In this document: one piece after another, positions 1 to 15,658 of the stretch
Numbering within the stretch: the stretch's first letter is position 1
Layout of the letters: each line of letters starts with the position of its first letter
DNA from: Paraburkholderia caffeinilytica
GTDB lineage: Bacteria; Pseudomonadota; Gammaproteobacteria; Burkholderiales; Burkholderiaceae
DNA length: 64,000 nt
NCBI RefSeq assembly: GCF_003368325.1
Contig: NZ_CP031466.1
Coordinates: 1-64,000 of the forward strand
Direction of reading: 5' to 3'
Translations under genes and position numbers: made by a program
The notes under the pieces: generated by a model
What the model saw: the letters and a program-made list of their open reading frames with translations, nothing else
Told to the model about the DNA's origin: nothing
Databases searched by the model: none

Positions 1-26
1 GCCCTCTGCGATCCGGATGATCCGCA

Positions 27-3023
27 ATGGCTACCCTCGAACGCACCGCGTACCCGCGCTTCCCCGAGGTTCTGGCACCCCGGGAACTGCAAGCCAGCTA
101 CACGCCGCTGTCCGACGAACTCGAGTGGGCACGCCGGTCAACGCGCGGCGAGCGGCCTCGATTGGGCCTGCTCGTGCTGCTGAAGGTCTTTCAGCAACTG
201 CACAATTTCCCGCCGCTCGACACGATTCCGGGTGCCATCGTCGATCATGTGCGGGCGGCCGCCAACATTGCGGACACCGTGCCATTTGGCTACGACACCG
301 CGTCGTCCTCGACGCTGTTCCGGCATTACGCCGCGGTACGCGCCTGGCTGAACGTGAAGCCGTATTACGGCACCGACGCGAACGCGATCGCGACACGCGC
401 GGCGCACACGGCGTCGCTGACGATGGACCAGCCGGTCGACATCATCAACGCGACGATCGACGAGTTGATCGCACGCGATGTCGAACTGCCCGCGTTCTCG
501 ACGCTGGACCGGCTGACCGAACAGATCCACGCTCGGGCTCAGTCCCGACTGTTCAAGCGCGTCACGCGACGCCTGACCGATGCACAGAAGCTCACGCTCA
601 ACCGGATGCTCGCACGCGACCTGTCGAGCCGGCAGACTGCCTACAACCGCATCAAGCGTCATGCGAAACGCCCATCGCGCCAGCATCTGAACCTGCTGAT
701 CGACCAGATTGCCTGGCTTGACGAACTCGGCGATTTTTCACTGGCCGTCGCTGGAATTCCCGCCTCAAAGCTGCGCTCGCTCGCGAATCAGGCGATGGCG
801 CTCGATGCGTCGGCGCTCAGGAACGACACACTGCCCGAGAAGCGCTACACACTGATCGTCGCGCTGCTCAACCGCATGCGCGTGCGCGCCCGCGACGATC
901 TTGCCGACATGTTTGTACGGCGCATGGGCGCCATCCACAAGCGCGCGAGCGACGAGCTGGACGTGATCCAGCGCAAGCAGCGTGATCAGGTCGAGGACCT
1001 CGTCGTCCTGCTGGATGGCGTGGCCGACATCCTCGCCGACGAATCCGACGAGACGGCCATCGCCAGGGCAGTCAGGAAGCTGCTCGCGCCGAAAGGTGAT
1101 CTGGAGCCGCTGCGCGAGAGCTGTGCGGCGATCCGTGCATTTAGCGGCCGCAACTATCTGCCGCTGCTCTGGAAGCACTTCAAGGCCCACCGTTCAGTCA
1201 TGATGCGTGTCGCCCGTACGCTCGAATGGGATTCGACCAGCCCGGTCCGTTCGCTGCTCAATGCACTCGACGTCGTGCTGAAAAACGAGTCGCGGCATCG
1301 CGAGTGGATCGAGGCCGACGTCGATCTGGGCTTTGCCGCGCCGCGGTGGCGCAAGCTCGCGCGTCGCTCACACGGCGACGGAGCGCCGACCAATCGCCGG
1401 TACCTCGAGCTCTGCGTGTTCTCGTACATGGCCGAGGAGCTACGGGTCGGCGACCTGTGCGTATCCGGCTCTGACGCCTACGCTGACTATCGCGACCACC
1501 TGCTGCCGTGGCGGCAATGCGAGCAGCAGTTGCCAGACTATTGCGACAAGCTCGGCATGCCAACGACCGGCAGTGACTTCGTGCACCATCTGCGTCAATG
1601 GCTGACGGCCGCCGCCCGCAAGCTTGACGACGAACTGCCGCGCAAGCGCGAGCACGTCGTAATCGACCGTCATGGCGAACCGATCCTGCGCAAAACCGTC
1701 GCGAAGGAGATTCCGGCGAGCGCGATCGCACTCCAGGAGCGGCTCAACGCCCGCCTGCCGACGCGGAACATGCTGGACATCCTCGCGAACATCGAACACT
1801 GGACGCATTTCACGCGGCACTTCGGGCCGCTGTCCGGGAGCGATCCCCAGATCCGCAAGGCTGCCGAGCGCTACCTGCTGACCGTTTTCGCGATGGGCTG
1901 CAATCTCGGCCCGACCCAGGCGGCCCGCCATCTCGACTCGGATGTAACCGCGCACATGCTCTCGTTCGTCAACCGTCGGCATATGAGCCTGGACAAGCTC
2001 GAAACCGCACAGCGCGAACTGATCGAACTGTACCTGCGGCTGGATCTGCCGAAACACTGGGGCGATGGCAAGACGGTAGCGGCCGACGGAACACAGTACG
2101 ACTTCTACGACAACAACCTGTTGGCCGGCTATCACTTCCGCTACCGGAAGATGGGGGCGGTCGCGTACCGGCATGTCGCCGACAACTATATCGCGGTGTT
2201 CCAGCACTTCATTCCGCCGGGCGTCTGGGAAGCGATCTATGTGATCGAGGGGCTGCTGAAAGCGGGTCTGTCGGTCAAGGCCGATACCGTCCATGCCGAT
2301 ACGCAGGGGCAGTCGGCTGCCGTTTTCGCGTTCACGTACCTGCTCGGCATCAACCTGATGCCGCGGATCCGAAACTGGAAGGATCTCGTCCTGTACCGGC
2401 CGGACGGCAAGGCCAGGTACAGGCACATCGACAAGCTGTTCACGGCGACCATCGACTGGGTGCTGATCGAGCAGCACTGGCAGGAGCTGATGCAGGTCGC
2501 GCTGTCGATTCAGGCGGGTACGATCTCGTCGCCGCTGCTGCTGCGCCGGCTTGGCTCCGAAAGCCGCAAGAACCGGCTGTACCTGGCCGCGCGCGAACTC
2601 GGCAACGTCGTTCGCACGGTGTTTCTGCTCGAGTGGATAGGCAGCCTCGAATTGCGGCAGGAGGTCACCGCGAACACGAACAAGATCGAGTCGTACAACG
2701 GCTTCTCCAAGTGGCTGTCGTTCGGTGGCGACGTGATCGCCGAGAACGAGCCGGAGGAGCAGCAGAAACGGCTACGCTACAATGACCTGGTCGCGTCGGC
2801 CGTGATCCTGCAAAACACGGTGGACATGATGCAAGCGCTGCGCGAGATGGCGGCAAACGGCGAGAAAGTGCGCGCCGAAGACATCGAGTTTCTGAGCCCG
2901 TACCCGACCCACAACATCCGGCGCTTCGGCCACTATAAACTGCACCTGGATCGTCGGCCGGAGGCCTGGATCAAAGACCCGCTGTTCGGCCATGCAGCCC
3001 GTACCTACGCATCCCGCCCATGA
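27..3023 (+). CDS. tnpA: Tn3-family transposase
   Basis: This 998-residue protein has the usual length of a Tn3-family transposase. Such enzymes cut at the terminal inverted repeats and move the element by replicative transposition. The C-terminal half carries the DDE catalytic domain: an Asp in AADGTQ near residue 688, an Asp in HADTQGQ near 757 and a Glu in NTNKIESYNG near 887. The N-terminal half is the DNA-binding and DUF4158-like part. Its stop codon overlaps the start of the next gene (ATGA), so the two are translationally coupled. The left inverted repeat should lie before base 27 and is not visible. The reading frame is intact, so the transposase could still be active. Confidence 0.95.
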   Translation: MATLERTAYPRFPEVLAPRELQASYTPLSDELEWARRSTRGERPRLGLLVLLKVFQQLHNFPPLDTIPGAIVDHVRAAANIADTVPFGYDTASSSTLFRHYAAVRAWLNVKPYYGTDANAIATRAAHTASLTMDQPVDIINATIDELIARDVELPAFSTLDRLTEQIHARAQSRLFKRVTRRLTDAQKLTLNRMLARDLSSRQTAYNRIKRHAKRPSRQHLNLLIDQIAWLDELGDFSLAVAGIPASKLRSLANQAMALDASALRNDTLPEKRYTLIVALLNRMRVRARDDLADMFVRRMGAIHKRASDELDVIQRKQRDQVEDLVVLLDGVADILADESDETAIARAVRKLLAPKGDLEPLRESCAAIRAFSGRNYLPLLWKHFKAHRSVMMRVARTLEWDSTSPVRSLLNALDVVLKNESRHREWIEADVDLGFAAPRWRKLARRSHGDGAPTNRRYLELCVFSYMAEELRVGDLCVSGSDAYADYRDHLLPWRQCEQQLPDYCDKLGMPTTGSDFVHHLRQWLTAAARKLDDELPRKREHVVIDRHGEPILRKTVAKEIPASAIALQERLNARLPTRNMLDILANIEHWTHFTRHFGPLSGSDPQIRKAAERYLLTVFAMGCNLGPTQAARHLDSDVTAHMLSFVNRRHMSLDKLETAQRELIELYLRLDLPKHWGDGKTVAADGTQYDFYDNNLLAGYHFRYRKMGAVAYRHVADNYIAVFQHFIPPGVWEAIYVIEGLLKAGLSVKADTVHADTQGQSAAVFAFTYLLGINLMPRIRNWKDLVLYRPDGKARYRHIDKLFTATIDWVLIEQHWQELMQVALSIQAGTISSPLLLRRLGSESRKNRLYLAARELGNVVRTVFLLEWIGSLELRQEVTANTNKIESYNGFSKWLSFGGDVIAENEPEEQQKRLRYNDLVASAVILQNTVDMMQALREMAANGEKVRAEDIEFLSPYPTHNIRRFGHYKLHLDRRPEAWIKDPLFGHAARTYASRP

Positions 3024-3385
3024 CTGCACGCCCGGCCATCACTACGACCTGTTTCGGCGATGTCGACACCGCCGCGCTTGAGCGGCTCGAATCGAGCTAC
3101 GACACAACCCGCTTGCTGACCGCCGTCGATATCGTCGATCGCCTCCGCGCGCAGTTGCACGATCCCGAAGGGCTGCGCGATGATCTGCTGGGAATTCACA
3201 GCATGGCGCACGCGGTCTTGAACGGCGCACCGTCTGTGCCATCGCGACACGATGGCTCCTTTCCGGAGCAGGTGCTGGATGCACTGCACCTGATTGACGA
3301 ATTTATCGTAGAACTGACGCGGGTGAGAACGATTCTTGATCCGCTCGAAGCGTTGTACCCGGACGATGCGTTCGGCGAAGATTGA
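3020..3385 (+). CDS. tnpC: TnpC-like small partner of Tn3 transposase
   Basis: This 121-residue acidic protein starts inside the tnpA stop codon. By size, position and general composition it matches the TnpC protein of Tn4652-type Tn3 elements, which lowers transposase level after transcription. It has no cofactor motif or membrane segment. A long helical centre is predicted from the Leu/Asp/Arg pattern (DIVDRLRAQLHDPEGL). The family assignment is recalled from the family pattern, not from a search. The strict coupling to tnpA supports a role in transposition control. Confidence 0.7.
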   Translation: MTARPAITTTCFGDVDTAALERLESSYDTTRLLTAVDIVDRLRAQLHDPEGLRDDLLGIHSMAHAVLNGAPSVPSRHDGSFPEQVLDALHLIDEFIVELTRVRTILDPLEALYPDDAFGED

Positions 3386-3559
3386 GTGTGTGTGGGCGAA
3401 ACGCTTGCAGGGGTAATCGCGGGACTCAAATGACTCTGAGCGCCTCGGGCGATGTAAGAGCCGCGTTTACTGTGGCTCTCGGAATGTGCCCACACTTCCT
3501 GGGTCGTTTCAGGCCGATGCAGGTGGCAAAATCAGCCAAGTCTGAAGGGCACCCCGGAT

Positions 3560-3642
3560 GGCGGCCGAAGCTCGGCCGCCTGCCGTGACCGGTGAGCCGA
3601 AACGGGAGACGACGGCGCGGCTGCTGTGCCGCCTGCGCCGTC
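3560..3642. terminator. Hairpin pair between convergent genes
   Basis: The gap 3386-3683 separates tnpC from a convergent minus-strand gene. It contains a perfect 9-bp stem with a 3-base loop (3560-3568 with 3572-3580) and a second stem GACGGCGC/GCGCCGTC (3611-3618 with 3635-3642). Neither is followed by a T run, so they are hairpins that may stop transcription from both sides, not textbook terminators. The right end of the Tn3 element may also lie in this gap, but I could not identify its inverted repeat. Confidence 0.4.
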
Positions 3643-3683
3643 GCCGTACCTGATGCCGACGTGGGTCCTGACGGACCGTGTTG

Positions 3684-4208
3684 TTAGCTGGTGGTCTTCG
3701 TTCCACTCACGTCTGTCTCCCTCCTTTCGAGACGCAGATAGGTGTCTGCCGCTACCAGCCCGAACACGATGTGGGCAATGAGGCTCATCCAGCCTCGGGC
3801 GTCTGCGAACCACGGAAACAACCGGGTCATGCCGTAGAAGTTGACCAGGTACACGGCGACACCGAATAAAGCCCCCACCAGCGAGGCCATTCCGATGCTC
3901 GAATCAAAGCTGAACGGCGCCATGATCACCGCCAGAATGAGCGCGAAGACGATCGATAGCGCAAAGTGGACGACGAGCGCCACCAGCATGATGCCCGGGT
4001 CAAACGTGGCAGGTCGGGCAAGCGCATCACGTCCCAGGGCGATTGCCGCGATCATTTGCGGTGGTCCCCATGGGCTCTGCCCCGTGACCCACATGGCTAC
4101 GAGCTCGAGCACCAGGAAAACCACGCCAGCGACACAGCCGCCGATCACGGCCGCGCGCCAGTCAGGCGTACGGCGAGTGAAATGGTGCGAATGCATGTGA
4201 AGTTCCAT
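3684..4208 (-). CDS. Small integral membrane protein of the stress island
   Basis: This is a 174-residue protein of unknown function. The start at 4208 is chosen because AAGGAGG lies five bases upstream; an in-frame extension to 4271 has no such signal. After a His-rich N-terminus (MELHMHSHHF) there are about four hydrophobic segments: residues near 22-40, 75-100, 107-125 and 140-155. They suggest an inner-membrane protein with both ends in the cytoplasm. It is the last gene of the minus-strand chaperone cluster, about 160 bases beyond the preceding gene. I do not recognise the family with certainty. The context suggests a role in envelope stress, which is inference only. Confidence 0.7.
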   Translation of the reverse strand: MELHMHSHHFTRRTPDWRAAVIGGCVAGVVFLVLELVAMWVTGQSPWGPPQMIAAIALGRDALARPATFDPGIMLVALVVHFALSIVFALILAVIMAPFSFDSSIGMASLVGALFGVAVYLVNFYGMTRLFPWFADARGWMSLIAHIVFGLVAADTYLRLERRETDVSGTKTTS

Positions 4209-4366
4209 AGCGACCTCCTTACAGTAAAACAGCTCACCTGTGCCGCTCGCGCGAGCCATCCTGGACGACATTGGCGCGCCTGCGCCCTGATTGATATATT
4301 TCGGGTTCCCGACAGCGTGCCTCGTCGCGCAGCTTCCGCCTTCGACGTTCCGTTCCGCACGAAAAC

Positions 4367-4630
4367 CTACTGCGGCTGCTCGATCATCAGATAGCGAACG
4401 ACCAGCGCCGGATCGACGATTTCCAGAATGAGCCGGCGCAGAATGCGATTGCGCATGTGGTCCTCATCCAGCAGCCATGGACCGCCGACGTCGCTCAGAT
4501 GACGGGAAATCGCGTCGCGCATGGCGTCGCCTTCCGAAGGCGCGTCCAGCCGCACCGCCAGCAGCCCGGCGATTACGTCATCAAGCTCAATGCTCAAAGG
4601 CGTGGAATCAATCGTCAAATTCAGCTTCAT
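4367..4630 (-). CDS. Hypothetical protein downstream of dnaK
   Basis: This 87-residue protein begins MKLNLTIDSTPLSIEL. The start at 4630 follows a weak TGGTGA-type ribosome site, and the longer in-frame extension has no better one. The sequence is acidic with alternating hydrophobic residues. It ends with an Arg-rich helix (MRNRILRRLILEIVDP) and YLMIEQPQ. There is no signal peptide or known motif. It lies about 120 bases after dnaK on the same strand and is probably co-transcribed with it. It could be a small co-factor of the accessory chaperones, but no homology supports a function. Confidence 0.55.
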   Translation of the reverse strand: MKLNLTIDSTPLSIELDDVIAGLLAVRLDAPSEGDAMRDAISRHLSDVGGPWLLDEDHMRNRILRRLILEIVDPALVVRYLMIEQPQ

Positions 4631-4753
4631 GTTCACCAAAAATGGAAATCGTGTCCGCCGCAACAGCGAACGGCGCGGACCGGCTATTACGAGATGTCCG
4701 TGTATCGATTCGTCCAAGCCTGGAATCGAGCCGAAGCATGGCATTGCTGCGGC

Positions 4754-6688
4754 TTACCGCTTCGTCTTCACCTCCTTGAACTCGGCATCGACCACGTCCT
4801 CCTCCCTTGTTCCGCCACCGGCCTCCTGACTGGCCGAGCCTTCTGAGCCACTGGCTGCCTGCGACTGCACGTCGGCATACAGCTTTTCGCCGAGCTTCTG
4901 CGAGGCCGTGGCGAGCGCATGCACCCGGGCGTCGATCTCGGCCTTGTCGGATCCCTTGAGCGCTCCCTCGAGCTCCTTGATCGCGGCTTCGATCTTTTCC
5001 TTCTCACCCGCCTCCAGCTTGTCGCCGTACTCGGTGAGCGCCTTCTTCGTGCTATGCACCAGGGCATCGCCATGGTTACGCGCGTCAACCAGCTCACGCA
5101 TCCGGTGATCTTCAGCGGCGTGGGCCTCGGCATCCCTCACCATCTTCTGTATTTCCTCCTCGGACAGACCTGAATTGGCCTTGATGGTGATGCGGCTTTC
5201 CTTGCCGGTCGCCTTGTCTTTGGCCGACACGTGCAGGATGCCATTCGCGTCGATGTCGAACGTCACCTCGATCTGCGGCACGCCGCGCGGCGATGGTGGG
5301 ATGCCTTCGAGGCTGAACTCGCCCAGCAGCTTGTTGCCCGTGACCATCTCGCGCTCGCCCTGATAGACCTTGACCGTCACGGCAGGCTGGTTGTCGTCGG
5401 CGGTGGAGAAAATCTCCGAGAATTTGGTCGGGATGGTGGTGTTCTTCTCGATCATCCTGGTCATCACGCCGCCCTGTGTTTCGATGCCGAGCGACAGCGG
5501 CGTGACGTCAAGCAGCAGCACGTCCTTGCGCTCACCTGCGAGCACCGCGCCCTGGATGGCCGCGCCCGCCGCCACGGCTTCGTCAGGATTGACGTCCTTG
5601 CGCGGCTCGCGGCCGAAAAACGCCCGAACCTTGTCCTGCACCCTGGGCATGCGGGTCATCCCGCCCACCAGAATCACGTCATCGATCTTGTCCACTGCCA
5701 CGGCGGCGTCCTTGATGGCGATGCGGCATGGCTCCATCGTGCGCTCGATCAGATCTTCGACCAGTGCTTCGAGCTTGGCCCGCGTGAGCTTCAGCGTGAG
5801 ATGCCTGGGTCCGCTCGCGTCGGCCGTGATATACGGCAGATTGATTTCGGTCTGCTGGGTCGACGACAGTTCGATCTTCGCCTTTTCGGCCGCCTCCTTC
5901 AGGCGCTGCAGTGCGAGCACGTCCTTCGACAGGTCGACGCCTTGCTCCTTCTTGAACTCGCCGATGATGTAGTCGATGATGCGCTGGTCGAAGTCCTCGC
6001 CGCCAAGGAACGTGTCGCCGTTGGTCGAGAGCACTTCGAACTGTTTCTCGCCCTGCACGTCGGCGATCTCGATGATGGAGATGTCAAAGGTGCCGCCGCC
6101 GAGGTCGAACACGGCGATCTTGCGGTCACGGTTTTCCTGCTTGTCCAGGCCGAACGCGAGCGCCGCCGCAGTCGGCTCGTTGATGATCCGCCTTACTTCA
6201 AGGCCGGCGATGCGGCCGGCGTCCTTCGTGGCCTGCCGCTGGCTGTCGTTGAAGTAGGCGGGCACCGTGATGACGGCTTCAGTGACAGGTTCGCGGAGGT
6301 ATTCCTCGGCGGTCTTCTTCATCTTGCGCAGCACCTCCGCCGATACCTGCGGCGGGGCAAGCTTCTTGTCCTGCGCCTCGACCCATGCGTCGCCGTTGTC
6401 GGCCTTGAAAATTCTGAAAGGCATCAGGCCGATGTCCTTCTGCACTTCCTTCTCTTCGTAGCGGCGGCCGATCAACCGCTTGACGGCAAACAGCGTGTTT
6501 TTTGGATTGGTCACGGCCTGGCGCTTCGCCGGTGCGCCGACGAGCACTTCGTCCTCGTCCATGTAGGCGACGATCGACGGCGTGGTGCGCGCACCTTCCG
6601 AATTTTCGATTACCTTGACCTGACTGCCTTCCATCAGCGCCACGCACGAGTTCGTGGTGCCGAGGTCGATGCCGATGATCTTGCCCAT
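4754..6688 (-). CDS. dnaK: Accessory Hsp70 chaperone DnaK
   Basis: This is a full-length Hsp70 of 644 residues. It is an ATP-driven chaperone that binds exposed hydrophobic peptides. The nucleotide-binding domain shows [10 protein letters not shown] at the N-terminus, [13 protein letters not shown] and [11 protein letters not shown]. The substrate domain and helical lid follow, and the tail [13 protein letters not shown] keeps the usual DnaK C-terminal motif. The start at 6688 matches the [12 protein letters not shown] beginning of known DnaK; a GTG three codons earlier is possible. No dnaJ or grpE is adjacent, unlike the housekeeping locus, and groEL lies just upstream. It is therefore probably a second, island-borne dnaK that borrows co-chaperones from the chromosome. 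Confidence 0.96.
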
Positions 6689-6769
6689 GGTTTTCACTCG
6701 CTCGATCTGGTTCGGGGAATGCCCCGTGAATCCCGCTCCGTTACGCCGTCATCCCACTGCGCATCCCGG

Positions 6770-8413
<1,644 letters not shown>

Positions 8414-8458
8414 TCAGACAAAATGCAACACCGTGCGATGGCGCCGCCATCGATCTCC

Positions 8459-8761
8459 TCATGAAGCGGAATCCGCGGTCACCACCGCCAGTAGGTCAGC
8501 TTCGCGCATGACCAGCAGCTCTTCGCCTTCGACCTTGATGGCGGTGCCGGCATACTTGCCGAACAGCACGCGGTCGCCCACCTTGACGTCCGGTTCGCAA
8601 CGGCGGCCATCCTCGAGCCGCGTGCCGGGGCCGACGACAATCACTTCTCCGTGGTCGGGTTTTTCGGCAGCAGTATCGGGGATGACGATGCCTGCTGCGG
8701 TCCTGCGCTCCTGTTCCTGCCGCCTGACCACGACCCGATCATGCAAAGGACAGATTTTCAT
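8459..8761 (-). CDS. groES: Accessory co-chaperonin GroES
   Basis: This 100-residue protein has the normal GroES length and forms the heptameric lid of the GroEL chamber. It begins [18 protein letters not shown], the usual N-terminal strand. The mobile-loop region includes [15 protein letters not shown], and the strands GEVIVVGPG and VLFGKYAG are typical. It precedes groEL directly, so a matched GroES-GroEL pair is encoded. No convincing heat-shock promoter lies in the 85 bases upstream. Transcription more likely comes from the promoter upstream of the sigma-like gene. Confidence 0.96.
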
Positions 8762-8846
8762 GATTGGCTCCGTGTCGTCACAGATGCTGTCTATGGGGAT
8801 TCGGTAGTATGCCGAATCGACTGCATGGCGATTCCGCGCGGGGTGC

Positions 8847-9095
8847 TCAACCGGCCCCCGACCTCACTGCGGAGCGCCTGATCGCCGATCTTCCGCGGGT
8901 TGACCAGATCCCCTGGCCGGGGGCAACAGACGCACCTTTTGCACGTCCCGACGCCCGGCGCGCCCGCGGCGCACCGGCCTCGGACGCCGGCGTGCACGCA
9001 ATGGGGTCGCTGGCCAGAAAGGTTTCCCGCAGCGCCTCGTCGAGCAGCGCATCTGCATCAGCGAGGTCCGAGTGTGGCGTCCTGAGGGTCTTCAT
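8847..9095 (-). CDS. Small protein coupled to the HPF-sigma fusion gene
   Basis: This 82-residue protein starts at an ATG that overlaps the stop codon of the upstream gene (ATGA). A strong ribosome site, GGAGGTGA, lies inside the end of that gene, and this coupling is the main support for it being real. The N-terminus [22 protein letters not shown] is acidic and helical. The rest is Arg/Ala/Gly rich and may be disordered. No motif or membrane segment is visible. It lies between the sigma-like gene and groES and could be a small regulator or antagonist of its partner. That role is inference. Confidence 0.55.
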
Positions 9096-10237
9096 CGTTC
9101 ACCTCCATGCCGAGCCCTACGCGGCGTATCTCCCCGCGTGGCGTCATCGAACTCCCGGGTCAGCCGGGACGCCGGTGGCGGCATGCCGGCCACGACGTAG
9201 TCTCCGGCCACGCCTGCGTCCTGGGGCGTGAATCGCAGCTCGCGGAGTCGGGCCTTGAGAAACGCATCGGCATCCACGAGCCAGCGCTTGAGTTCGTGCT
9301 CGCTGGTGCCGAGCACCTGAGCGGCGGAGGCTCGGGGCACGGCTTCCATCCGGCACAGCACCAGCGCCTGGCGCCACGACGTCGGCATGTCTGCAATAAG
9401 CGCTGCCACGAGTCGACGTGTTTCCTTTGCGCTCAATTCCTCTTCGGGCGTACCGTCGGCCGCCGGCGTCACGTCTTCGAGTCGCAGCACTTCGTCGGGT
9501 TGCCAGTATTCGAACAGGATCTCGTCATCGTCTTCGTGCGGCTCGCGCAACTGAACCGGCGGTCTGCCTTCCAGGGAGATCCAGCGGCCCTCGTCGGTCT
9601 GCCGGCGGCTCACGTCCTCGGCGAGCAAGTCGAGCGCGATCTGGTAGAGCCACTGTCTCGGCTCGAGCTTGCGTGGACGCCGCGCGAGTCTTTCGCAGGC
9701 GCGGGCCAGCGTCTCGTCGACGACCTCATCCACGGCGGGGTCCCCTGGTGCGAGGTCGCCGCGCGCCTGCAGGTAGGCGAGTTCGCGCTCCACGAAGCGC
9801 TTGAGCTCCGGCAGCAATGGGCGCACGAGCTCACTGAACAGCGCTAGCCCGGCTGCGACCGGACCGGCCGCCGCGCCTTTGAGCCGACGCAACCCGGCGC
9901 GGCGCTCCTTGCGGCGCCAGTTGTCCTCGTGACGCAGGTGGGCGCTGTGGCGCTCGAGTTGCCGCTCCAGTTCCACGAAGGACAGTTCGAGGGCTTTTTC
10001 GAGTTCGGGCGACTCGTCCGAGCAGGCGAGCGTGGCACTCGGCAATCCGAGCCGGAGCCTTGCCCGGTAGAGACTGCGATGGCCGCTTCGTTCGAGGGTC
10101 GCACGCAACCGGACGAGTTCGGCGGGGAAGTGCGACAGGTGCGGCTGGAGGTGTCGGCCGAGGAGATTGCCAACCAATCGTTCCAGGTCGGGGCGGGCAA
10201 GCTCCGAAATGTTCCGGTAACTGATCGCCGTTTTCAT
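9092..10237 (-). CDS. Fusion of HPF/RaiA-like domain with ECF-type sigma factor
   Basis: This 381-residue protein appears to join two unrelated modules. Residues about 1-112 resemble the ribosome hibernation/sigma54-modulation (HPF, RaiA) fold: a long N-terminal helix, strands such as HRSLYRARLRLGLP, then a helix with the ELERQLERHSAHLR pattern and a basic end. Residues about 145-215 resemble sigma region 2 (DETLARACERLA, QWLYQIALDLLAEDV). Residues about 283-345 resemble sigma region 4, with a helix-turn-helix at ASAAQVLGTSEHELKRWL. Family limits are judged by eye. It heads the minus-strand chaperone cluster and is coupled to the next gene, so it may sense translational stress and drive these genes. 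Confidence 0.75.
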   Translation of the reverse strand: MKTAISYRNISELARPDLERLVGNLLGRHLQPHLSHFPAELVRLRATLERSGHRSLYRARLRLGLPSATLACSDESPELEKALELSFVELERQLERHSAHLRHEDNWRRKERRAGLRRLKGAAAGPVAAGLALFSELVRPLLPELKRFVERELAYLQARGDLAPGDPAVDEVVDETLARACERLARRPRKLEPRQWLYQIALDLLAEDVSRRQTDEGRWISLEGRPPVQLREPHEDDDEILFEYWQPDEVLRLEDVTPAADGTPEEELSAKETRRLVAALIADMPTSWRQALVLCRMEAVPRASAAQVLGTSEHELKRWLVDADAFLKARLRELRFTPQDAGVAGDYVVAGMPPPASRLTREFDDATRGDTPRRARHGGER

Positions 10238-10260
10238 GACAGTCCTGCACGTCTTCCAGT

Positions 10261-10282
10261 GGCCGCCGCATCGGAGGCGGCC
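10261..10282 (-). repeat. Hairpin in the leader of the fusion sigma gene
   Basis: A perfect 7-bp inverted repeat GGCCGCC/GGCGGCC with an 8-base loop lies 24 bases upstream of the start codon, just ahead of a weak AGGA ribosome site. It falls in the predicted 5' leader and could modulate translation. No U run follows. Confidence 0.45.
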
Positions 10283-10481
10283 GTCACTCCCTCAGGGGCG
10301 GGCGCGCGATCGCCGGCGGGACCACCGGCCCGACGCTTGCGCTGCGAGGCTCACCGTATCCGGTGAGGTTTCGCTTCGCACCCCTGACTCTGCCCGCTCG
10401 CTGTGTTTCCCAGACACTCGTCATCCGACGTCACGGGCATACGCCATTTGCCCTTCATCGCTATCCGGGCTGGCAACACAA

Positions 10482-10509
10482 AATATAAAAACAGTGGCGA
10501 AAAAATCAA
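10482..10509 (-). promoter_or_regulatory. Sigma70-like promoter for the chaperone cluster
   Basis: On the minus strand TTGATT (10504-10509) and TATATT (10482-10487) are separated by 16 bases. This is the best promoter match in the 399-base gap 10238-10636. It points toward the fusion sigma gene and implies a leader of roughly 240 bases. The preceding C also makes CTTGATT, a weak match to a sigma32 -35 box. The rest of the gap shows no gene that I trust. Confidence 0.5.
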
Positions 10510-10636
10510 GGGCCGCGATGCATTGCTGGACGTCGCAGGCGACTGCGAGGACATCCGCCCGAGCGGGCGGATTGAAGGCGCAGAAAATGGACACCGCGCA
10601 CGGTCGTGCATGCGCCTTCGAAGCTCTCCTGTCGGG

Positions 10637-11014
10637 TCAGTAGATCGGAAACACGAAGTCCGGCGTCGGTGCAAACTGGATTCCGGTATCCGGACAGGTG
10701 ATGCGCCCTCTCACCGCGACCCGCTGGTTCAGATACGGCAACAGCAGCAAGTGTTCGGTGGTGCCGGCCTGGCCGAGCAGGATGTCGGTCACGACCTTGT
10801 CGCTGCACGGTGAAGCGGCCGGGCGATCCAGCCGGATCGTCGTATAGTCTCCCGGCGCGAACTGCCCGTTGCCCCGCTGGATAGTACCGGCGATCCAGAT
10901 GTCCTGCTGGACTGGCAATGCCCGCGGCAGTGGCGCAATAGCGACCACTGCTGCAGGGAAGGCGCCCGCGGCCAGGGCGGCCGCGGCGAGTAACCCGCGT
11001 GATCGTATTTTCAT
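10637..11014 (-). CDS. Small exported protein of the stress island
   Basis: This 125-residue protein starts at 11014, where GGGAGC precedes the ATG. The start MKIRSRGLLAAAALAAGAFP is a clear Sec signal peptide with cleavage probably near residue 25. The mature part is about 95 residues. It has two cysteines (SPCSDK and RITCPDTG) that could form a disulphide, and a beta-rich pattern (IWIAGTIQRG, RVAVRGRITC). It recalls DUF4431-type periplasmic domains, but I cannot confirm this. It follows the 127-residue gene on the same strand, so both may be driven by the sigma32-like promoter at 11527-11556. Confidence 0.6.
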   Translation of the reverse strand: MKIRSRGLLAAAALAAGAFPAAVVAIAPLPRALPVQQDIWIAGTIQRGNGQFAPGDYTTIRLDRPAASPCSDKVVTDILLGQAGTTEHLLLLPYLNQRVAVRGRITCPDTGIQFAPTPDFVFPIY

Positions 11015-11110
11015 GGTGATGCTCCCATTCCGCGACAGACGCCGCCGCGTCCGCACTCGCCGGCAGGAGACGAGAGCCGGCGCCTGCAGGACGGCGGGAC
11101 GCAGGCTCGA

Positions 11111-11494
11111 TCATTGGATCGGCGGTGCTGCACCAATCTTCTCTGACAACATCCGCTCGTAGACACCAAAGTGCAGATCGACCTCCTTCTGCGTAACATG
11201 TGTGACCGTGATGTTGATCTGGTCAGGTAACAGGCCCAGCACGACCGCCACCGCGGCTTCAAGTTGCGGTGCACAAACCTTGTCTTCCACCATCGTCGTG
11301 CCGACCAGCACGTCGTAGGTCTTTTCCTGCCGACAGACAACCTCGACGAGTCGCGCCCGTGCGCTCATGTTGTTGTCGATCGCGAGCCTGACGACCTCCA
11401 CCACGGTGCGCATCGTCTCGGTCGGAAAGCCCTTCGTCGAGCGCAGCCGGATACGATGCCTGCCCAGCGTAAGCCAGTCCGTGTCGAATTCCAT
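11111..11494 (-). CDS. Hypothetical cytoplasmic protein under heat-shock-like promoter
   Basis: This 127-residue protein starts at 11494, five bases after GGAGG; an earlier in-frame ATG at 11518 lacks a ribosome site. It has an alpha/beta pattern with strands such as HRIRLRSTKGF and INITVTHVTQKEVDLHFGVYE, two cysteines and no membrane segment. No family is recognised. It is the first gene leftward from a sigma32-like promoter and is divergent from the Hsp20 genes. Co-induction on heat stress is therefore predicted. Confidence 0.65.
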   Translation of the reverse strand: MEFDTDWLTLGRHRIRLRSTKGFPTETMRTVVEVVRLAIDNNMSARARLVEVVCRQEKTYDVLVGTTMVEDKVCAPQLEAAVAVVLGLLPDQINITVTHVTQKEVDLHFGVYERMLSEKIGAAPPIQ

Positions 11495-11526
11495 GACGTC
11501 CTCCATATGCAGTTCCAAGCCGCTGC

Positions 11527-11556
11527 GATGATAGGTTCCAGCGCCGAAATTTCAAG
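11527..11556 (-). promoter_or_regulatory. Sigma32-like promoter, leftward
   Basis: On the minus strand CTTGAAA (11550-11556) is followed after 14 bases by CCTATCAT (11528-11535). This fits the heat-shock sigma factor RpoH consensus (CTTGAAA, spacer 11-16, CCCATnT-like). It lies about 35 bases upstream of the start at 11494 and mirrors a second site facing the Hsp20 genes. Confidence 0.7.
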
Positions 11557-11577
11557 TGCAAAAATCTGCCGACGCCC

Positions 11578-11607
11578 CTTGAAATTTTCTGCAGAGTTCC
11601 TATCTTA
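11578..11607 (+). promoter_or_regulatory. Sigma32-like promoter, rightward, for hsp20 operon
   Basis: CTTGAAA (11578-11584) and CCTATCTTA (11599-11607) are separated by 14 bases, matching the RpoH consensus. The leader to the first Hsp20 start at 11744 would be about 130 bases. It is back-to-back with the leftward copy and has the same spacing. Confidence 0.72.
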
Positions 11608-11743
11608 AGTTTCGCTCAGGCAGCCGCGCGGATCGCTTCATTCCGTGCGCTGCGTGTTTCGATTTGTTTGTCAGCAGTCTGGCAGGCGAACTGGAGCGCG
11701 TAGGCCCGTTCGCATCCCGGCTGCACTCAAGGAGGATACGATC

Positions 11744-12184
11744 ATGAGCGATCTTTACTTCGGAACCGACCTCTTCGGCGAGTTTGACCGCCTGCAGCAG
11801 CAGATGGCGCAACTCTTCGGCGGTTTCCCGTCCAGCATCCGCGCCGGCCGTTTCGGCGCGTTTCCTCAGATCAACATCGGTGCGACCGACGAGTCGATCG
11901 AGATTGTCGCCTTCGCCCCAGGCATCAACGCCACCGAACTCGACGTATCGGTCGACAAGGGCCTGCTGACCATCAGCGGCGAACGCAAATCGACACAACC
12001 TGACACTGGTAGCGAGACGCGCACCTATGCGCAGGAGCGCTTTGCCGGCATCTTCCGGCGCGTCATCGAGCTGCCGGAGACCGCCGATCCCGATAAGGTT
12101 CAGGCGCGCTACGAAAATGGCTGCCTGTCGATCAGCATCGGCAGGCGCGAATCGTCCAAGCCGCGCGCTATCACTGTCCAGTAA
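11744..12184 (+). CDS. Small heat shock protein Hsp20, copy 1
   Basis: This 146-residue protein contains an alpha-crystallin domain and is an ATP-independent holdase that keeps unfolded proteins soluble. The start at 11744 follows AAGGAGG; a longer in-frame reading from 11645 has no ribosome site. The N-terminal arm DRLQQQMAQLFGGFP is followed by the domain from about residue 40. Typical signatures are GLLTISGERK, FRRVIELPETADPDKV and YENGCLSISI. It is the first gene of the rightward heat-shock operon, and the next Hsp20 begins 15 bases after its stop. Confidence 0.94.
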   Translation: MSDLYFGTDLFGEFDRLQQQMAQLFGGFPSSIRAGRFGAFPQINIGATDESIEIVAFAPGINATELDVSVDKGLLTISGERKSTQPDTGSETRTYAQERFAGIFRRVIELPETADPDKVQARYENGCLSISIGRRESSKPRAITVQ

Positions 12185-12199
12185 TCCGAGGAGGCGATC

Positions 12200-12607
12200 A
12201 TGACTGACACGACCCAACTGGCTGAACGCGACCAATCCGCAGTGGCGCGTCGCGACACTGAACAGCCCGCGCGCCGGATCACGCTCACCCCGGCCGTCGA
12301 CATATACGAGGACCCCCAGGGCGTCACGCTGTGGGCTGATCTGCCCGGCGTGACGAAGGACAAGCTGGACGTCAAAGTTCACGACAGCAGCCTCTCGATC
12401 GAGGCCGAGGCGGTGGTGCCGACGCGGGCAAACCTGCGGCTGCAGCATGCCGAGGTCCGCGAACCGCACTTCGCCCGGACGTTCACGCTGTCACCGGACT
12501 TCGATACGTCAAAGATCGAGGCGAACCTCCAGGACGGGGTGCTGAAGCTGACGATCCCACGCCGCGACGAGGCGCGTCCACGGCGCATCGAAGTCAAGAC
12601 CAGCTGA
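12200..12607 (+). CDS. Small heat shock protein Hsp20, copy 2
   Basis: This 135-residue alpha-crystallin protein differs clearly from copy 1. Residues 25-130 form the crystallin domain (ITLTPAVDIYEDPQGVTLWA, LPGVTKDKLDVKVHD, FARTFTLSPDFDTSKIEA, LQDGVLKLTIPRRDE). It starts after AGGAGG at 12190. Paired dissimilar Hsp20s are common in stress operons and may form mixed oligomers. It is co-transcribed with copy 1. Confidence 0.93.
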   Translation: MTDTTQLAERDQSAVARRDTEQPARRITLTPAVDIYEDPQGVTLWADLPGVTKDKLDVKVHDSSLSIEAEAVVPTRANLRLQHAEVREPHFARTFTLSPDFDTSKIEANLQDGVLKLTIPRRDEARPRRIEVKTS

Positions 12608-12636
12608 CCCGCCAGCAATGGCAGGTCAGAAGCATG

Positions 12637-12660
12637 GGCGGCAGCGCGTGCGCTGCCGCC
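12637..12660 (+). repeat. Intercistronic perfect hairpin in hsp20 operon
   Basis: GGCGGCAGCGC (12637-12647) and GCGCTGCCGCC (12650-12660) form a perfect 11-bp stem, GC only apart from one A-T pair. It sits 30 bases after the stop of Hsp20 copy 2 with no T run. It could protect the upstream mRNA, or reduce expression of the distal genes. It also argues that the next gene starts after it. Confidence 0.5.
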
Positions 12661-12687
12661 GCCACGAACCAGAAACAGGGGGCGCCG

Positions 12688-12969
12688 GTGTCTGATGTCA
12701 CGCAGGAGTCCTGGAAAGGACATGCGATCCGCATCCGCACGATTCCCGTGCGACAGATCCTGACACGCATGTCCGCACCGGACGGCTATATCGCGATCGT
12801 CCGGATCGACCGGAACGACGAGGTGTTAGCCGACTGGCATCTGCCGCGCTTCAGCGAACGCTGGACGAGCGCGGCCGAAGCGCAGCGCGATGCGGTCGAG
12901 TACGCGGTGAAACTGATCGATCGCGGGGTGCCTGGAGCAATCGAAGCTCAGGGCGCGCTCGCTACCTGA
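12688..12969 (+). CDS. Hypothetical protein within hsp20 operon
   Basis: This is a 93-residue protein if it starts at the GTG at 12688 behind a GGGGG-type site. An ATG at 12634 is in frame but would place a strong hairpin inside the first codons. The sequence has short beta strands (IRIRTIPVR, YIAIVRIDRNDEVLADW) and a helix (SAAEAQRDAVEYAVKLID), a compact alpha/beta pattern. There is no signal peptide or known motif. It lies between two Hsp20 genes on the same strand and is presumably heat-induced with them. Function unknown. Confidence 0.6.
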   Translation: MSDVTQESWKGHAIRIRTIPVRQILTRMSAPDGYIAIVRIDRNDEVLADWHLPRFSERWTSAAEAQRDAVEYAVKLIDRGVPGAIEAQGALAT

Positions 12970-13019
12970 TGCGCTGGCCGTCACGCTCAAAACAGATTGA
13001 AGCTGAATCGGAGGACGCT

Positions 13020-13583
13020 ATGAATACCGATCTGAAAAAGTGGAACCCCTTCAAGTTCCTTCGCGGAGCTGCCCGCAAGTCCGATGCAGAAGGCCCGGAA
13101 AGCCCACCGACAAGCGAACAGTGGCGAGCCTCGTGGCCTGACATTCCGCGACTGTTCTCACGCGAACCGTGGCGTGCGGTGGAGGAGTTCTTTCATGACC
13201 CGTTTGCAGGCCGTGGCGCGCTCGAACGATGGTTTGGCGACTTCAGTTCATCGCGCTTCCAGCCGCGCATCGATGTCGTCGATGAAGGGCAGGTGCTGCG
13301 CGTGACCGCCGAACTGCCCGGAATGGAGCGCGAAGACCTGAATGTGAGCGTCGAGGACGGGGCGATCGTGCTGCGCGGCGAGAAAAAGCAGGATGTGCGC
13401 AGCGAGGAAAACGGCTGCTACCGGCTGGAGCGCGCCCATGGAAGCTTCATGCGCACGATCCCGATGCCGGAAAACGCCGACCCCAATCATGCCTTGGCAA
13501 AGTTTGACAACGGTGTACTCACGTTGACCGTGCCAAAATCCGAGCCGGCGCGATCCGCGAGTCGCACGATCGATATCGGCTAG
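13020..13583 (+). CDS. Small heat shock protein Hsp20, copy 3 with long N-terminal arm
   Basis: This 187-residue Hsp20 starts at 13020 behind GGAGG; an in-frame ATG at 12969 has no ribosome site. It has a longer N-terminal arm than copies 1 and 2 (about 75 residues, with Pro/Glu and Trp/Phe patches such as WRAVEEFFHDPF). The crystallin domain follows: FQPRIDVVDE, LPGMEREDLNVSVEDGAIVL, RTIPMPENADPNHALAKFDN, GVLTLTVPKSE. It ends the rightward heat-shock operon, 49 bases before the tRNA-Lys. The arm length suggests a different client or oligomer state from the other two. Confidence 0.94.
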   Translation: MNTDLKKWNPFKFLRGAARKSDAEGPESPPTSEQWRASWPDIPRLFSREPWRAVEEFFHDPFAGRGALERWFGDFSSSRFQPRIDVVDEGQVLRVTAELPGMEREDLNVSVEDGAIVLRGEKKQDVRSEENGCYRLERAHGSFMRTIPMPENADPNHALAKFDNGVLTLTVPKSEPARSASRTIDIG

Positions 13584-13966: not shown

Positions 13967-15658
13967 ATGAAAACGCGCGAGACCCTTCCCGTCGACGACA
14001 ACGGGCCCGACTTCCCGGGCGAAGCCGAACTCGCCACACTGCGCGGCTGGTACGCCGGCCTGGACGCGCGGACCGCCGTTGCCCGCTATCTGGGCGACCG
14101 CCGGGCGGTCGGAGCGTCGTCGCGTGGCATGCTCGGCCGGATTCGCCGGCAGCTCATCGCGTACGCACAGGCCCGCCACCGCGCAGACCTGGCGGCCGCG
14201 TTCGTCGATTACCCGACGCGTGCGGCGGCCGACGGCGTGGCCCGCGCGATCGAGGTTCTCCGCAATCTACCGGCGCCCGCGCCACTGATCACCGACGCGG
14301 TCGACCTGTGGCTGCCGCCGCGCATTGTCGAGGCGCTGCATGCACATGGGCTTCGGACGCTGGCCGACCTGACCGTGCGGATTCCGCGGCGGCGTCGCTG
14401 GTGGTCCGCGATCGCCGGACTCGGCGTCGCCAGCGCTCGCCGCATCGAGGCGTTCTTCGCCGCCCATCCGTCCCTGACCGAACGCGCACGGGCATTGATC
14501 GTCGCAGCACCGTCCGGCGGCATCATGCCGTGGGAACAGCTGCGCGTGCCGCATGAGGTCGACGGTTCGCGCGGCCAGTTCCGCGCGCCGCGAACCGCCT
14601 GCCTGCTGAATGCGCCCAACGACTACGAGGCGATCCAGTCCTGGCTGTCGCTGCACGAGTCGACCGCCACGCAGCGCGCGTACCGAAAAGAGGCCGAACG
14701 CCTAGTCCTGTGGGCGATCGTCGAGCGCGGCCGCGCGCTGTCGTCGTTGACGACCGACGACGCGATCGCCTATCGCGGTTTCCTGCGGCGGCCGACGCCA
14801 CGCGAGCGCTGGGTCGGACCATCACGGCCGCGGCACAGTATCGAATGGCGGCCGTTCACCGGTCCGCTGTCCGCCCGCTCGGCAGCGTACGCGCTAAACG
14901 TGCTGTCGGCGTTGTTTCGCTGGCTGGTCGAGCAGCACTACGTGCTCGCGAATCCGTTCGCCGGCGTCAAGATCAAGAGCCACGCGCAGCGTGCGGGACT
15001 GGACGTGTCCCGGGGATTCACCGAGGGCGAGTGGTTGTTGATCCGCGCACTCGCCGACGGCCTCGAATGGTCGTACAGCTGGAGCGTGCCGGCCGCGCAG
15101 CGCCTCCGCTTCCTGCTGGACTTCGGCTACGCGACCGGCTTGCGCGCGAGCGAACTGGTCGGCGCGACGCTCGGCCACATCCGCCGCGACGAGCACGGCG
15201 ATCACTGGCTGCACGTACTCGGCAAAGGTGGCAAGCTCGGCAAGGTGACCCTGCCGTCGCTCGCTCGGACCGCGCTGGATCAGTATCTCGTGCAGCGCGG
15301 GCTGCCGGTCACGCCGACACGCTGGAGCCCGGCGACGCCGCTCGTCGCGAGCCTTGAGGAAGATGGCGCGGGCATCGAACCCAGACGGCTCTGGCGCGTG
15401 CTGCGACGGTTCTTCGTGCTGGTGGCCGATGCAATCCAGGATGATCGGCCGGCGATCGCCGAAAAGCTGCGCCGCGCGAGCCCGCACTGGATGCGCCACA
15501 CGCATGCGTCGCACGCGCTGGCCCGAGGCGCCGAATTGATCATGGTGCGCGATAATCTGCGCCATTCGTCGATCTCGACAACGTCGACCTATCTGCATAG
15601 CGACGAAGTACAGCGAGCACGGCAGTTCGATCAGGCATTCGGGGTGCGTAAGACCTGA
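13967..15658 (+). CDS. Large tyrosine recombinase (DUF3701-type phage integrase family)
   Basis: This is a 563-residue site-specific recombinase. The first 200 residues form an extra N-terminal region with a helix-hairpin-helix-like segment (LADLTVRIPRRRR, IAGLGVASARRIEAFF). A SAM-like core-binding domain follows (YEAIQSWLSLHESTATQRAY). The C-terminal catalytic domain has Arg in TGLRASEL near residue 393, the box HWMRHTHASHAL near 507 and Tyr in TSTYLHSDE near 541, so all key residues are present. It lies about 260 bases after the tRNA-Lys. It may integrate the island or resolve Tn3 cointegrates, and the sequence does not decide between these. Confidence 0.92.
   Translation: MKTRETLPVDDNGPDFPGEAELATLRGWYAGLDARTAVARYLGDRRAVGASSRGMLGRIRRQLIAYAQARHRADLAAAFVDYPTRAAADGVARAIEVLRNLPAPAPLITDAVDLWLPPRIVEALHAHGLRTLADLTVRIPRRRRWWSAIAGLGVASARRIEAFFAAHPSLTERARALIVAAPSGGIMPWEQLRVPHEVDGSRGQFRAPRTACLLNAPNDYEAIQSWLSLHESTATQRAYRKEAERLVLWAIVERGRALSSLTTDDAIAYRGFLRRPTPRERWVGPSRPRHSIEWRPFTGPLSARSAAYALNVLSALFRWLVEQHYVLANPFAGVKIKSHAQRAGLDVSRGFTEGEWLLIRALADGLEWSYSWSVPAAQRLRFLLDFGYATGLRASELVGATLGHIRRDEHGDHWLHVLGKGGKLGKVTLPSLARTALDQYLVQRGLPVTPTRWSPATPLVASLEEDGAGIEPRRLWRVLRRFFVLVADAIQDDRPAIAEKLRRASPHWMRHTHASHALARGAELIMVRDNLRHSSISTTSTYLHSDEVQRARQFDQAFGVRKT

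What the first reader, a model, noticed from the sequence alone, without database searches (positions are those of the whole stretch)
9092..10237. HPF/RaiA-like domain fused to an ECF-type sigma factor at the head of a chaperone operon
One 381-residue frame appears to join a ribosome hibernation-like module (residues about 1-112) to sigma regions 2 and 4. It is followed by translationally coupled and co-directional groES, groEL and dnaK. A protein that could bind ribosomes when translation stops and RNA polymerase when freed would be a direct link from ribosome state to chaperone expression. I know of no described system of exactly this form, but the domain calls are by eye.
Basis: partly seen in the sequence, partly recalled or inferred. 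Interest (0 to 1): 0.85.

Follow-up and report, generated by a model that had tools for sequence, protein, structure and literature searches.

The report
Hibernation-factor/sigma-mimic fusion in stress islands
A gene on a mobile heat-stress island makes one protein from a ribosome-sleep module and a transcription-factor-like module that seems to have lost its grip on DNA; the same kind of protein is the unexplained "orf11" of the heat-resistance island found in Klebsiella, Enterobacter and E. coli.

Summary
The fusion is real: one minus-strand frame (9092-10237, 381 aa) joins an HPF/RaiA-like domain to sigma regions 2 and 4. Full-length relatives occur in Beta-, Alpha- and Gammaproteobacteria and in Nitrospirota and Acidobacteriota MAGs, so it is no sequencing error. 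[quoted passage not shown] Among 80 loci, groES-groEL-dnaK are neighbours only in Burkholderiaceae; in 46 of 49 alphaproteobacterial loci the nearest is clpG. Both DNA-reading faces have lost basic residues: the recognition helix has median charge -2, against +3 and +5 in ordinary sigma proteins and -2.5 in PhyR, a known sigma mimic. Sigma32-type boxes precede the Hsp20 genes, and a sigma70-like box precedes the fusion gene. Published E. coli work does not list orf11 among the genes needed for heat or chlorine resistance. I propose a hibernation adaptor that docks on ribosomes and probably core RNA polymerase without reading promoters. That is inferred; no structure or binding was tested, and the direct HPF signal of the window's own subgroup is weak. 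Nine literature searches found no description of the fusion.

The parts
9092..10237 (-). HPF/RaiA-sigma fusion gene, 381 aa
   Evidence: ORF; Pfam/NCBIfam; 48 relatives
9899..10237 (-). HPF/RaiA (S30AE)-like domain, residues 1-113, ending in the conserved basic motif W-[KR]-R-x-x-R-R (residues 107-113)
9587..9838 (-). sigma region-2-like domain, residues 134-217, with a family-specific insertion at 152-161 (E-LAYLQARG-D)
9470..9514 (-). family signature FEYWQPDEVLRLEDV in the acidic linker (residues 242-256)
   Evidence: alignments
9236..9430 (-). sigma region-4-like domain, residues 270-334, with an acidic recognition helix (311-326)
8847..9095 (-). 82-aa ORF overlapping the fusion's stop (ATGA); relatives (motif LDEALxETFPASDPxACT) in 6 of 90 loci searched, all six Burkholderiaceae (L006, L020, L021, L023, L025, L027)
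   Evidence: no Pfam hit
8459..8761 (-). groES
   Evidence: Cpn10
6770..8392 (-). groEL (the genome also has a groEL of 75% identity elsewhere)
4754..6697 (-). dnaK
10482..10509 (-). sigma70-like box TTGATT-N16-TATATT, ending 244 nt before the fusion's start codon; same in the near-identical L006 and L020, and a variant in L029; not seen in the aligned upstream regions of L021-L028
   Evidence: consensus recalled; a match, not proof
10637..11056 (-). ORF139, unknown
   Evidence: no Pfam hit
11111..11518 (-). ORF135, unknown, relatives in 10 of 80 loci, all Burkholderiaceae
11531..11556 (-). sigma32-type box CTTGAAA...CCTAT toward ORF135
   Evidence: consensus recalled
11578..11603 (+). sigma32-type box CTTGAAA...CCTAT toward the Hsp20 genes
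   Evidence: consensus recalled
11741..12184 (+). Hsp20 (1)
12200..12607 (+). Hsp20 (2)
12634..12969 (+). DUF6566 protein
12969..13583 (+). Hsp20 (3)

Best explanation
This is an accessory protein of mobile stress-tolerance islands, built from an HPF/RaiA-fold domain and an ECF-derived sigma mimic. SHOWN by sequence: the fusion, its conservation, its presence in three kinds of stress island (Burkholderiaceae groESL/dnaK islands, alphaproteobacterial ftsH-clpG islands, and the enterobacterial tLST as orf11), and the loss of basic residues on both DNA-reading faces of the sigma part. INFERRED: the sigma part does not direct promoter-specific transcription. When translation slows (stationary phase, heat), the HPF-like domain sits on idle ribosomes or subunits, while the sigma mimic and its very acidic linker occupy core RNA polymerase or compete with other sigma factors. 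Both machines would thus be held or protected in step while the island's chaperones deal with aggregates. The partners would have to be something every host already has, because the gene moves among distant hosts and I found no partner gene that travels with it throughout.
For: Architecture. Loss of DNA-reading charge: the recognition-helix core (residues 311-326) has a median charge of -2 in 56 family members, +3 in 18 own-genome sigma-region-4 proteins, +5 in 21 alphaproteobacterial ECFs and -2.5 in 16 PhyR-tagged proteins; family vs PhyR p=0.16. Region 2.3-2.4 has a median of -1, against +3 and +5 (p=4.9e-16; PhyR +0.5), and an Arg present in 38 of 39 sigma proteins at column 210 is Ala, Ser, Glu or Thr in 38 of 56 members. 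The region 2.2 helix keeps an acidic pattern, with D174 in 56 of 56 where 35 of 39 sigma proteins have Gln and 8 of 16 PhyRs Ala. The linker 218-268 has a median net charge of -13. Stress context: 60 of 80 loci have a chaperone or protease relative within 2 kb, made up of Burkholderiaceae 12 of 12, alphas 46 of 49, the remaining groups 2 of 19. Control: within 1.4 kb of the gene, 61 of 80 fusion loci but 0 of 85 loci around ordinary sigma, PhyR and canonical HPF genes have such a relative. tLST proteins rise into stationary phase (PMC8290217 section 6).
Against: No structure could be predicted and nothing was tested biochemically. The HPF part keeps only 4 of 16 canonical basic positions, and its direct profile match to canonical HPFs is weak in the Burkholderia, alpha and tLST-only subgroups (P=0.0038, 0.0048, 0.0019), so ribosome binding may be altered or lost. 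In E. coli carrying the tLST, 7 of 13 genes were needed for heat or chlorine resistance and orf11 is not among the seven named (PMC8407380 section 9); its deletion did not change lipid oxidation after chlorine (same paper, passages). LHR2 variants with orf11 disrupted still confer heat resistance (PMC5383660 passages). Of 13 gammaproteobacterial genome loci only 1 has a stress neighbour, though several of these contigs are short. An RNAP-core contact is inferred from one helix only.
Confidence: 0.38

Rival explanations
1. A genuine ECF-type sigma factor with unusual promoter recognition, held inactive by its own HPF-like domain on ribosomes and released to transcribe the island.
For: Clear homology of regions 2 and 4 to ECF sigmas. 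It precedes chaperone genes in Burkholderiaceae. The Blastocatellia relative L038 keeps a mildly basic recognition helix, +2.
Against: Basic DNA-contact residues are lost in both reading faces across 56 members. Recognisable boxes in the Burkholderiaceae islands are of sigma32 and sigma70 type, with no excess of an ECF-type box in 14 upstream regions. Neighbour genes differ between clades.
Confidence: 0.17
2. A PhyR-like anti-anti-sigma: the sigma mimic captures an anti-sigma factor and frees another sigma, and the HPF-like domain is the sensor.
For: The recognition-helix charge is indistinguishable from PhyR. The PhyR_sigma-like Pfam model matches 34 of 56 members.
Against: No receiver domain among the families shown. 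No small partner gene is shared throughout: the coupled 82-aa ORF has relatives in 6 of 90 loci, and in 20 loci outside the main islands no neighbour was shared by more than two. Region 2.2 does not resemble PhyR's.
Confidence: 0.18
3. Both domains have been reused as protein-binding scaffolds (for example as a decoy or client adaptor for the neighbouring ClpG, FtsH or DnaK), and neither ribosome nor RNAP is a target.
For: Canonical basic residues are lost in both halves. ClpG, GroES, DnaK or FtsH is the nearest chaperone-type neighbour in 58 of 80 loci.
Against: Basic residues 92, 96, 108, 109, 112 and 113 of the HPF part are kept in at least 91% of members, which suggests a nucleic-acid or ribosome surface. 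Copies without such neighbours exist.
Confidence: 0.24
4. Artefact: two genes joined by a sequencing error.
For: The window protein alone scores under the Pfam cut-offs.
Against: Full-length relatives in dozens of independent records and several phyla.
Confidence: 0.01

Closest known systems
[quoted passage not shown]
   Same: Homologous over 95% of the length (about 31% identity, E about 1e-18). The tLST-only profile matches the Burkholderia profile in both halves (N part 2.3e-10, sigma part 8.1e-27). The name orf11 is given by gene order.
   Different: Different operon (clpK, yfdX, hdeD, trx, kefB rather than groESL-dnaK). The common Klebsiella form P0050 alone shows only a sub-threshold sigma4 match in Pfam. 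Published only as unknown (PMC8290217 passages, PMC5383660 passages).
HPF/RaiA (S30AE) ribosome hibernation factors
   Same: Same fold family by profile; the helix-2 motif RQxx[RK][HY] is kept.
   Different: Extra sigma module. 12 of 16 canonical basic positions are not kept, and a new basic tail follows.
PhyR (alphaproteobacterial sigma mimic, anti-anti-sigma)
   Same: ECF-derived sigma2-sigma4 module with an acidic recognition helix.
   Different: No receiver domain seen; an HPF-like domain at the N terminus instead; different region 2.2; also found outside Alphaproteobacteria.
[quoted passage not shown]
   Same: A sigma2-sigma4 core with an extra domain (PMC8999054 passages).
   Different: The extensions in the passages I saw are SnoaL-like, TPR, Cys-rich or membrane domains; the two reviews searched have no word beginning 'ribosom'.
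HibA (archaeal HPF/RaiA-CBS fusion)
   Different: The partner is a CBS module that also binds the ribosome, not a transcription module; Archaea.

Membership tests
HPF/RaiA (S30AE) | significant match of the domain to the S30AE profile or to solved HPFs | tested here: met
   S30AE in 49 of 56 members, best 1.2e-11; N-terminal profile vs E. coli HPF 1.3e-7. The window protein alone is sub-threshold, and the Burkholderia N part alone matches 31 canonical HPFs only at 0.0038.
HPF/RaiA (S30AE) | basic positions shared by canonical HPFs | tested here: not met
   Only 4 of the 16 positions that are K/R in at least 60% of 31 canonical Burkholderiales HPFs are K/R in at least 60% of the family.
HPF/RaiA (S30AE) | binds ribosomes and inhibits translation | not testable with these tools
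   needs biochemistry
ECF sigma factor | homologous regions 2 and 4 | tested here: met
   hhalign of the Burkholderia sigma part vs 18 own-genome sigmas, P=2.4e-16 over 172 columns; 3 column-shuffled controls 0.21 to 0.36; PDB 3e-12.
ECF sigma factor | basic DNA-reading faces in regions 2.3-2.4 and 4.2 | tested here: not met
ECF sigma factor | core-RNAP contact helix (region 2.2) | tested here: inconclusive
   An acidic helix is kept, but Gln is replaced by an invariant Asp.
PhyR | degenerate sigma4 recognition helix | tested here: met
   family -2 vs PhyR -2.5, p=0.16
PhyR | C-terminal receiver domain and a partnered NepR | tested here: not met
   No receiver among the 25 of 34 families shown nor in the ten proteins; no small partner gene shared throughout. 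NepR itself was not searched for.
tLST orf11 | full-length homology and a place in a stress island | tested here: met
   The tree has the tLST-like, Burkholderia and alpha groups each as one clade, so the window protein is a relative, not the same subfamily.

The most novel reading that the evidence does not exclude
A horizontally mobile dual-hibernation adaptor: one protein that parks idle ribosomes through an HPF-type domain and idle RNA polymerase through a sigma mimic that cannot read promoters. It would couple shutdown and protection of translation and transcription during severe stress, and would give a function to orf11 of the clinically widespread heat-resistance island.
Probability: 0.28. 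Interest if true: 0.9.

Novelty: new variant of a known kind. Interest (0 to 1): 0.66.

Why it matters
It gives a first structural identity to orf11 of the tLST, which the papers I saw list as unknown. Relatives of the window protein are on 294 plasmid records, 231 of them from Klebsiella, Enterobacter and Acinetobacter (four tLST records opened), and orf11 itself is in 152 of 5426 complete E. coli genomes. If the inferred mechanism holds, it would be a direct physical link between ribosome hibernation and RNA polymerase occupancy. It is testable at once in an existing E. coli K-12 gene-removal strain.

Tried and rejected
Promoters: Burkholderiaceae islands show sigma32-type boxes before Hsp20/ORF135. 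An alpha-type sigma32 scan of 49 loci gave 3 hits against 3 to 7 in shuffles, and the alpha divergent regions share a TATTATGCAAGCATATATGATGC-like stretch, perhaps a MarR operator (not followed). An ECF-type box was scanned for in 14 upstream regions only. A neighbour shared by the loci outside the main islands was sought in 20 loci; none was shared by more than two (with a crude ORF finder that lost the target frame in some loci). Sequencing error was rejected by conservation. Mapping of the rRNA-contact arginines of Thermus HPF (PMC6177447 passages) onto the family was left undecided because the alignment offset is uncertain.

Limits of the counts: the shuffles for promoters are single-base, not dinucleotide. 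The sigma32, sigma70 and ECF consensus patterns are recalled, not from a call. The PhyR set was tagged by C-terminal tail length; one of 16 (L156, +4) looks mis-tagged, and L140/L155 give duplicate sequences that were not removed. The 31 canonical HPFs come from Burkholderiales and many are near-identical. Of 149 genome contigs relatives only the best 80 were kept by the tool, and the scan used one peptide pattern from the linker motif, so copies without that motif are missed. Several loci without stress neighbours lie on short contigs, so neighbours may be cut off. L040 and L041 are frame-broken copies; they were counted in the context tally but not in the alignments. A5 leaves out the Cupriavidus locus L009. 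Columns in region 2.3-2.4 may be shifted by one or two; the net-charge comparison does not depend on that. Only the Burkholderia and tLST-like sigma parts and the Burkholderia, tLST-like and non-island N parts were given shuffled controls.

Full report
What is there. The frame at 9092-10237 is on the minus strand and encodes 381 aa. Alone it scores just below Pfam's curated cut-offs for S30AE (20.9 bits, cut-off 23.7) and Sigma70_r4_2 (17.8 bits, cut-off 25.7), and it has sub-threshold hits to PhyR_sigma-like and PhyR_sigma2 and to sigma70-ECF (31.7 bits, cut-off 42.9). S30AE matches 27 of 27 and Sigma70_r4_2 26 of 27 members of a close set that includes the window protein; in a broader set of 56 the numbers are 49 and 46. 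Two distant members exceed the cut-offs for both halves in one frame (L038, L043). A profile of the N-terminal part alone finds E. coli HPF at 1.3e-7, with all 17 PDB sequences below E=0.001 being HPF/RaiA/YfiA-type. The whole-protein profile finds ECF sigmas at 3e-12.

A weak point. Compared directly with 31 canonical HPFs, the N parts of the Burkholderia, alpha and tLST-only subgroups reach only P=0.0038, 0.0048 and 0.0019 (shuffled controls 0.04 to 0.75), while the non-island subgroup reaches 9.1e-9 over 91 columns. The HPF identity of the window's domain rests on its homology with that subgroup within one family (Burkholderia N vs alpha N 1.1e-21; tLST N vs non-island N 3.4e-14).

Surroundings. 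Downstream lie an 82-aa ORF that overlaps the fusion's stop by ATGA, then groES, groEL and dnaK. Coupling is therefore to the small ORF, and groES starts 330 nt beyond the fusion's stop. The small ORF has relatives in 6 of 90 loci, all Burkholderiaceae. Upstream are two unknown ORFs, and divergently three Hsp20 genes with a DUF6566 protein. A Tn3-type transposase (27-3023) and a phage-type integrase (13967-15658) flank the block. The own genome has one canonical HPF (95 bits) and a groEL of 75% identity elsewhere.

Distribution. tblastn against 72,556 plasmids finds 294 records, 273 of them over at least 80% of the query, led by Klebsiella (125), Enterobacter (74), Acinetobacter (32) and Escherichia (20). 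In the Enterobacter and Klebsiella records that I opened (three) and in a Salmonella one, the match is the "hypothetical protein" between hdeD-GI and trx-GI of the heat-resistance island, which by gene order is orf11. [quoted passage not shown] Of 149 relatives found in genome contigs, 80 were kept. In alphaproteobacteria 46 of 49 loci have a chaperone or protease relative within 2 kb, the nearest being clpG in all 46. In Burkholderiaceae 12 of 12 do (nearest groES in 7, dnaK in 3, Hsp20 in 2). Among the other 19 loci only 2 do (both FtsH), though several of those contigs are short. As a control, within 1.4 kb of the gene such a relative occurs in 61 of 80 fusion loci and in 0 of 85 loci around ordinary sigma, PhyR and canonical HPF genes. 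In a tree of 56 proteins the Burkholderia, alpha and tLST-like groups are each one clade (98/95, 100/100, 97/89). No match was found in 50,697 phage records.

The sigma part. It is homologous to ECF sigmas (profile comparison with 18 own-genome sigmas: P=2.4e-16 for the Burkholderia set and 5e-7 for the tLST-only set; six shuffled controls made from the Burkholderia and tLST-like sets lie at 0.12 or above), but it has lost what reads DNA. The core of the recognition helix has a median net charge of -2 (56 members, range -5 to +2) against +3 (18 own-genome sigma-region-4 proteins), +5 (21 alpha ECFs) and -2.5 (16 PhyR-tagged proteins). Region 2.3-2.4 has -1 against +3 and +5, with PhyR at +0.5. 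PhyR is the textbook sigma mimic (PMC8999054 and PMC8103513 passages). Unlike PhyR, the fusion keeps an acidic region 2.2 helix, with an Asp in 56 of 56 where the other sigma proteins have Gln in 35 of 39, and it has a family-specific insertion (152-161) and an acidic linker with the motif YWQPDExLRLEDV.

The HPF part. It keeps the helix-2 residues R92 and R96 and adds a basic tail (108, 109, 112, 113), but keeps only 4 of 16 canonical basic positions. Ribosome binding is plausible but cannot be taken for granted.

Expression. In the Burkholderiaceae islands sigma32-type boxes lie before Hsp20 or ORF135. In 12 genome-contig loci there are 13 boxes, 12 of them 41-171 bp upstream of such a gene; in all 83 loci searched there were 19 boxes against 1 to 5 in single-base shuffles. 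The fusion gene itself has a sigma70-like TTGATT-N16-TATATT ending 244 nt upstream, the same in the near-identical L006 and L020 and as a variant in L029, but not seen in the aligned upstream regions of L021-L028. An ECF-type box showed no excess (2 of 14 regions, the two being one sequence; shuffles 0.6). So nothing found points to promoters read by the fusion protein, on a limited search.

Interpretation. The best-supported reading is a sigma mimic tied to an HPF-fold domain. Because the gene moves among Alpha-, Beta- and Gammaproteobacteria and occurs in Nitrospirota and Acidobacteriota MAGs, and I found no partner gene linked to it throughout, its targets are probably universal: ribosome and RNA polymerase core. 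This is inference, and I give it 0.38. Against a major role in acute killing assays: orf11 is not among the 7 of 13 tLST genes found necessary for heat or chlorine resistance (PMC8407380 section 9), and its deletion did not change lipid oxidation. Long-term or stationary-phase phenotypes are not covered by the passages I read.

Novelty. Nine searches of the open-access library brought up no description of an HPF-sigma fusion or of orf11's identity in the listings and passages I saw; subscription papers and supplements were not searched. [quoted passage not shown] HPF fusions (HibA, PMC13324472) and sigma mimics (PhyR) are known separately; the combination appears new.

Noticed in passing
window 1-12631: Identical without a mismatch to the last 12,631 bases of contig C2 of the same assembly, while the window begins at base 1 of C1. 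Probably a contig-end overlap or an unresolved repeat, so the apparent second copy of the island may not be real.
   Followed up: partly
window 27-3023 and 13967-15658: Tn3-family transposase (DUF4158 + DDE_Tnp_Tn3) and a DUF3701/phage-integrase recombinase flank the chaperone block, consistent with a mobile island.
   Followed up: partly
window 8847-9095: Small ORF with the motif LDEALxETFPASDPxACT, coupled to the fusion gene; relatives in 6 of 90 loci, all Burkholderiaceae; no Pfam family.
   Followed up: partly
34 distinct alphaproteobacterial intergenic regions between Hsp20 and MarR (for example in L051): Conserved stretch TATTATGCAAGCATATATGATGC in most of the aligned divergent regions, possibly a MarR operator.
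   Followed up: no
L044-L099 (alphaproteobacterial loci): A gene annotated in L017/L018 as 'NADH dehydrogenase ubiquinone Fe-S protein 4' is a regular member of the alpha stress island (relatives in 47 of 80 loci); why is unclear.
   Followed up: no
window 10237-10482 (minus strand leader): A leader of about 240 nt lies between the sigma70-like box and the fusion's start codon; not tested for RNA structure.
   Followed up: no
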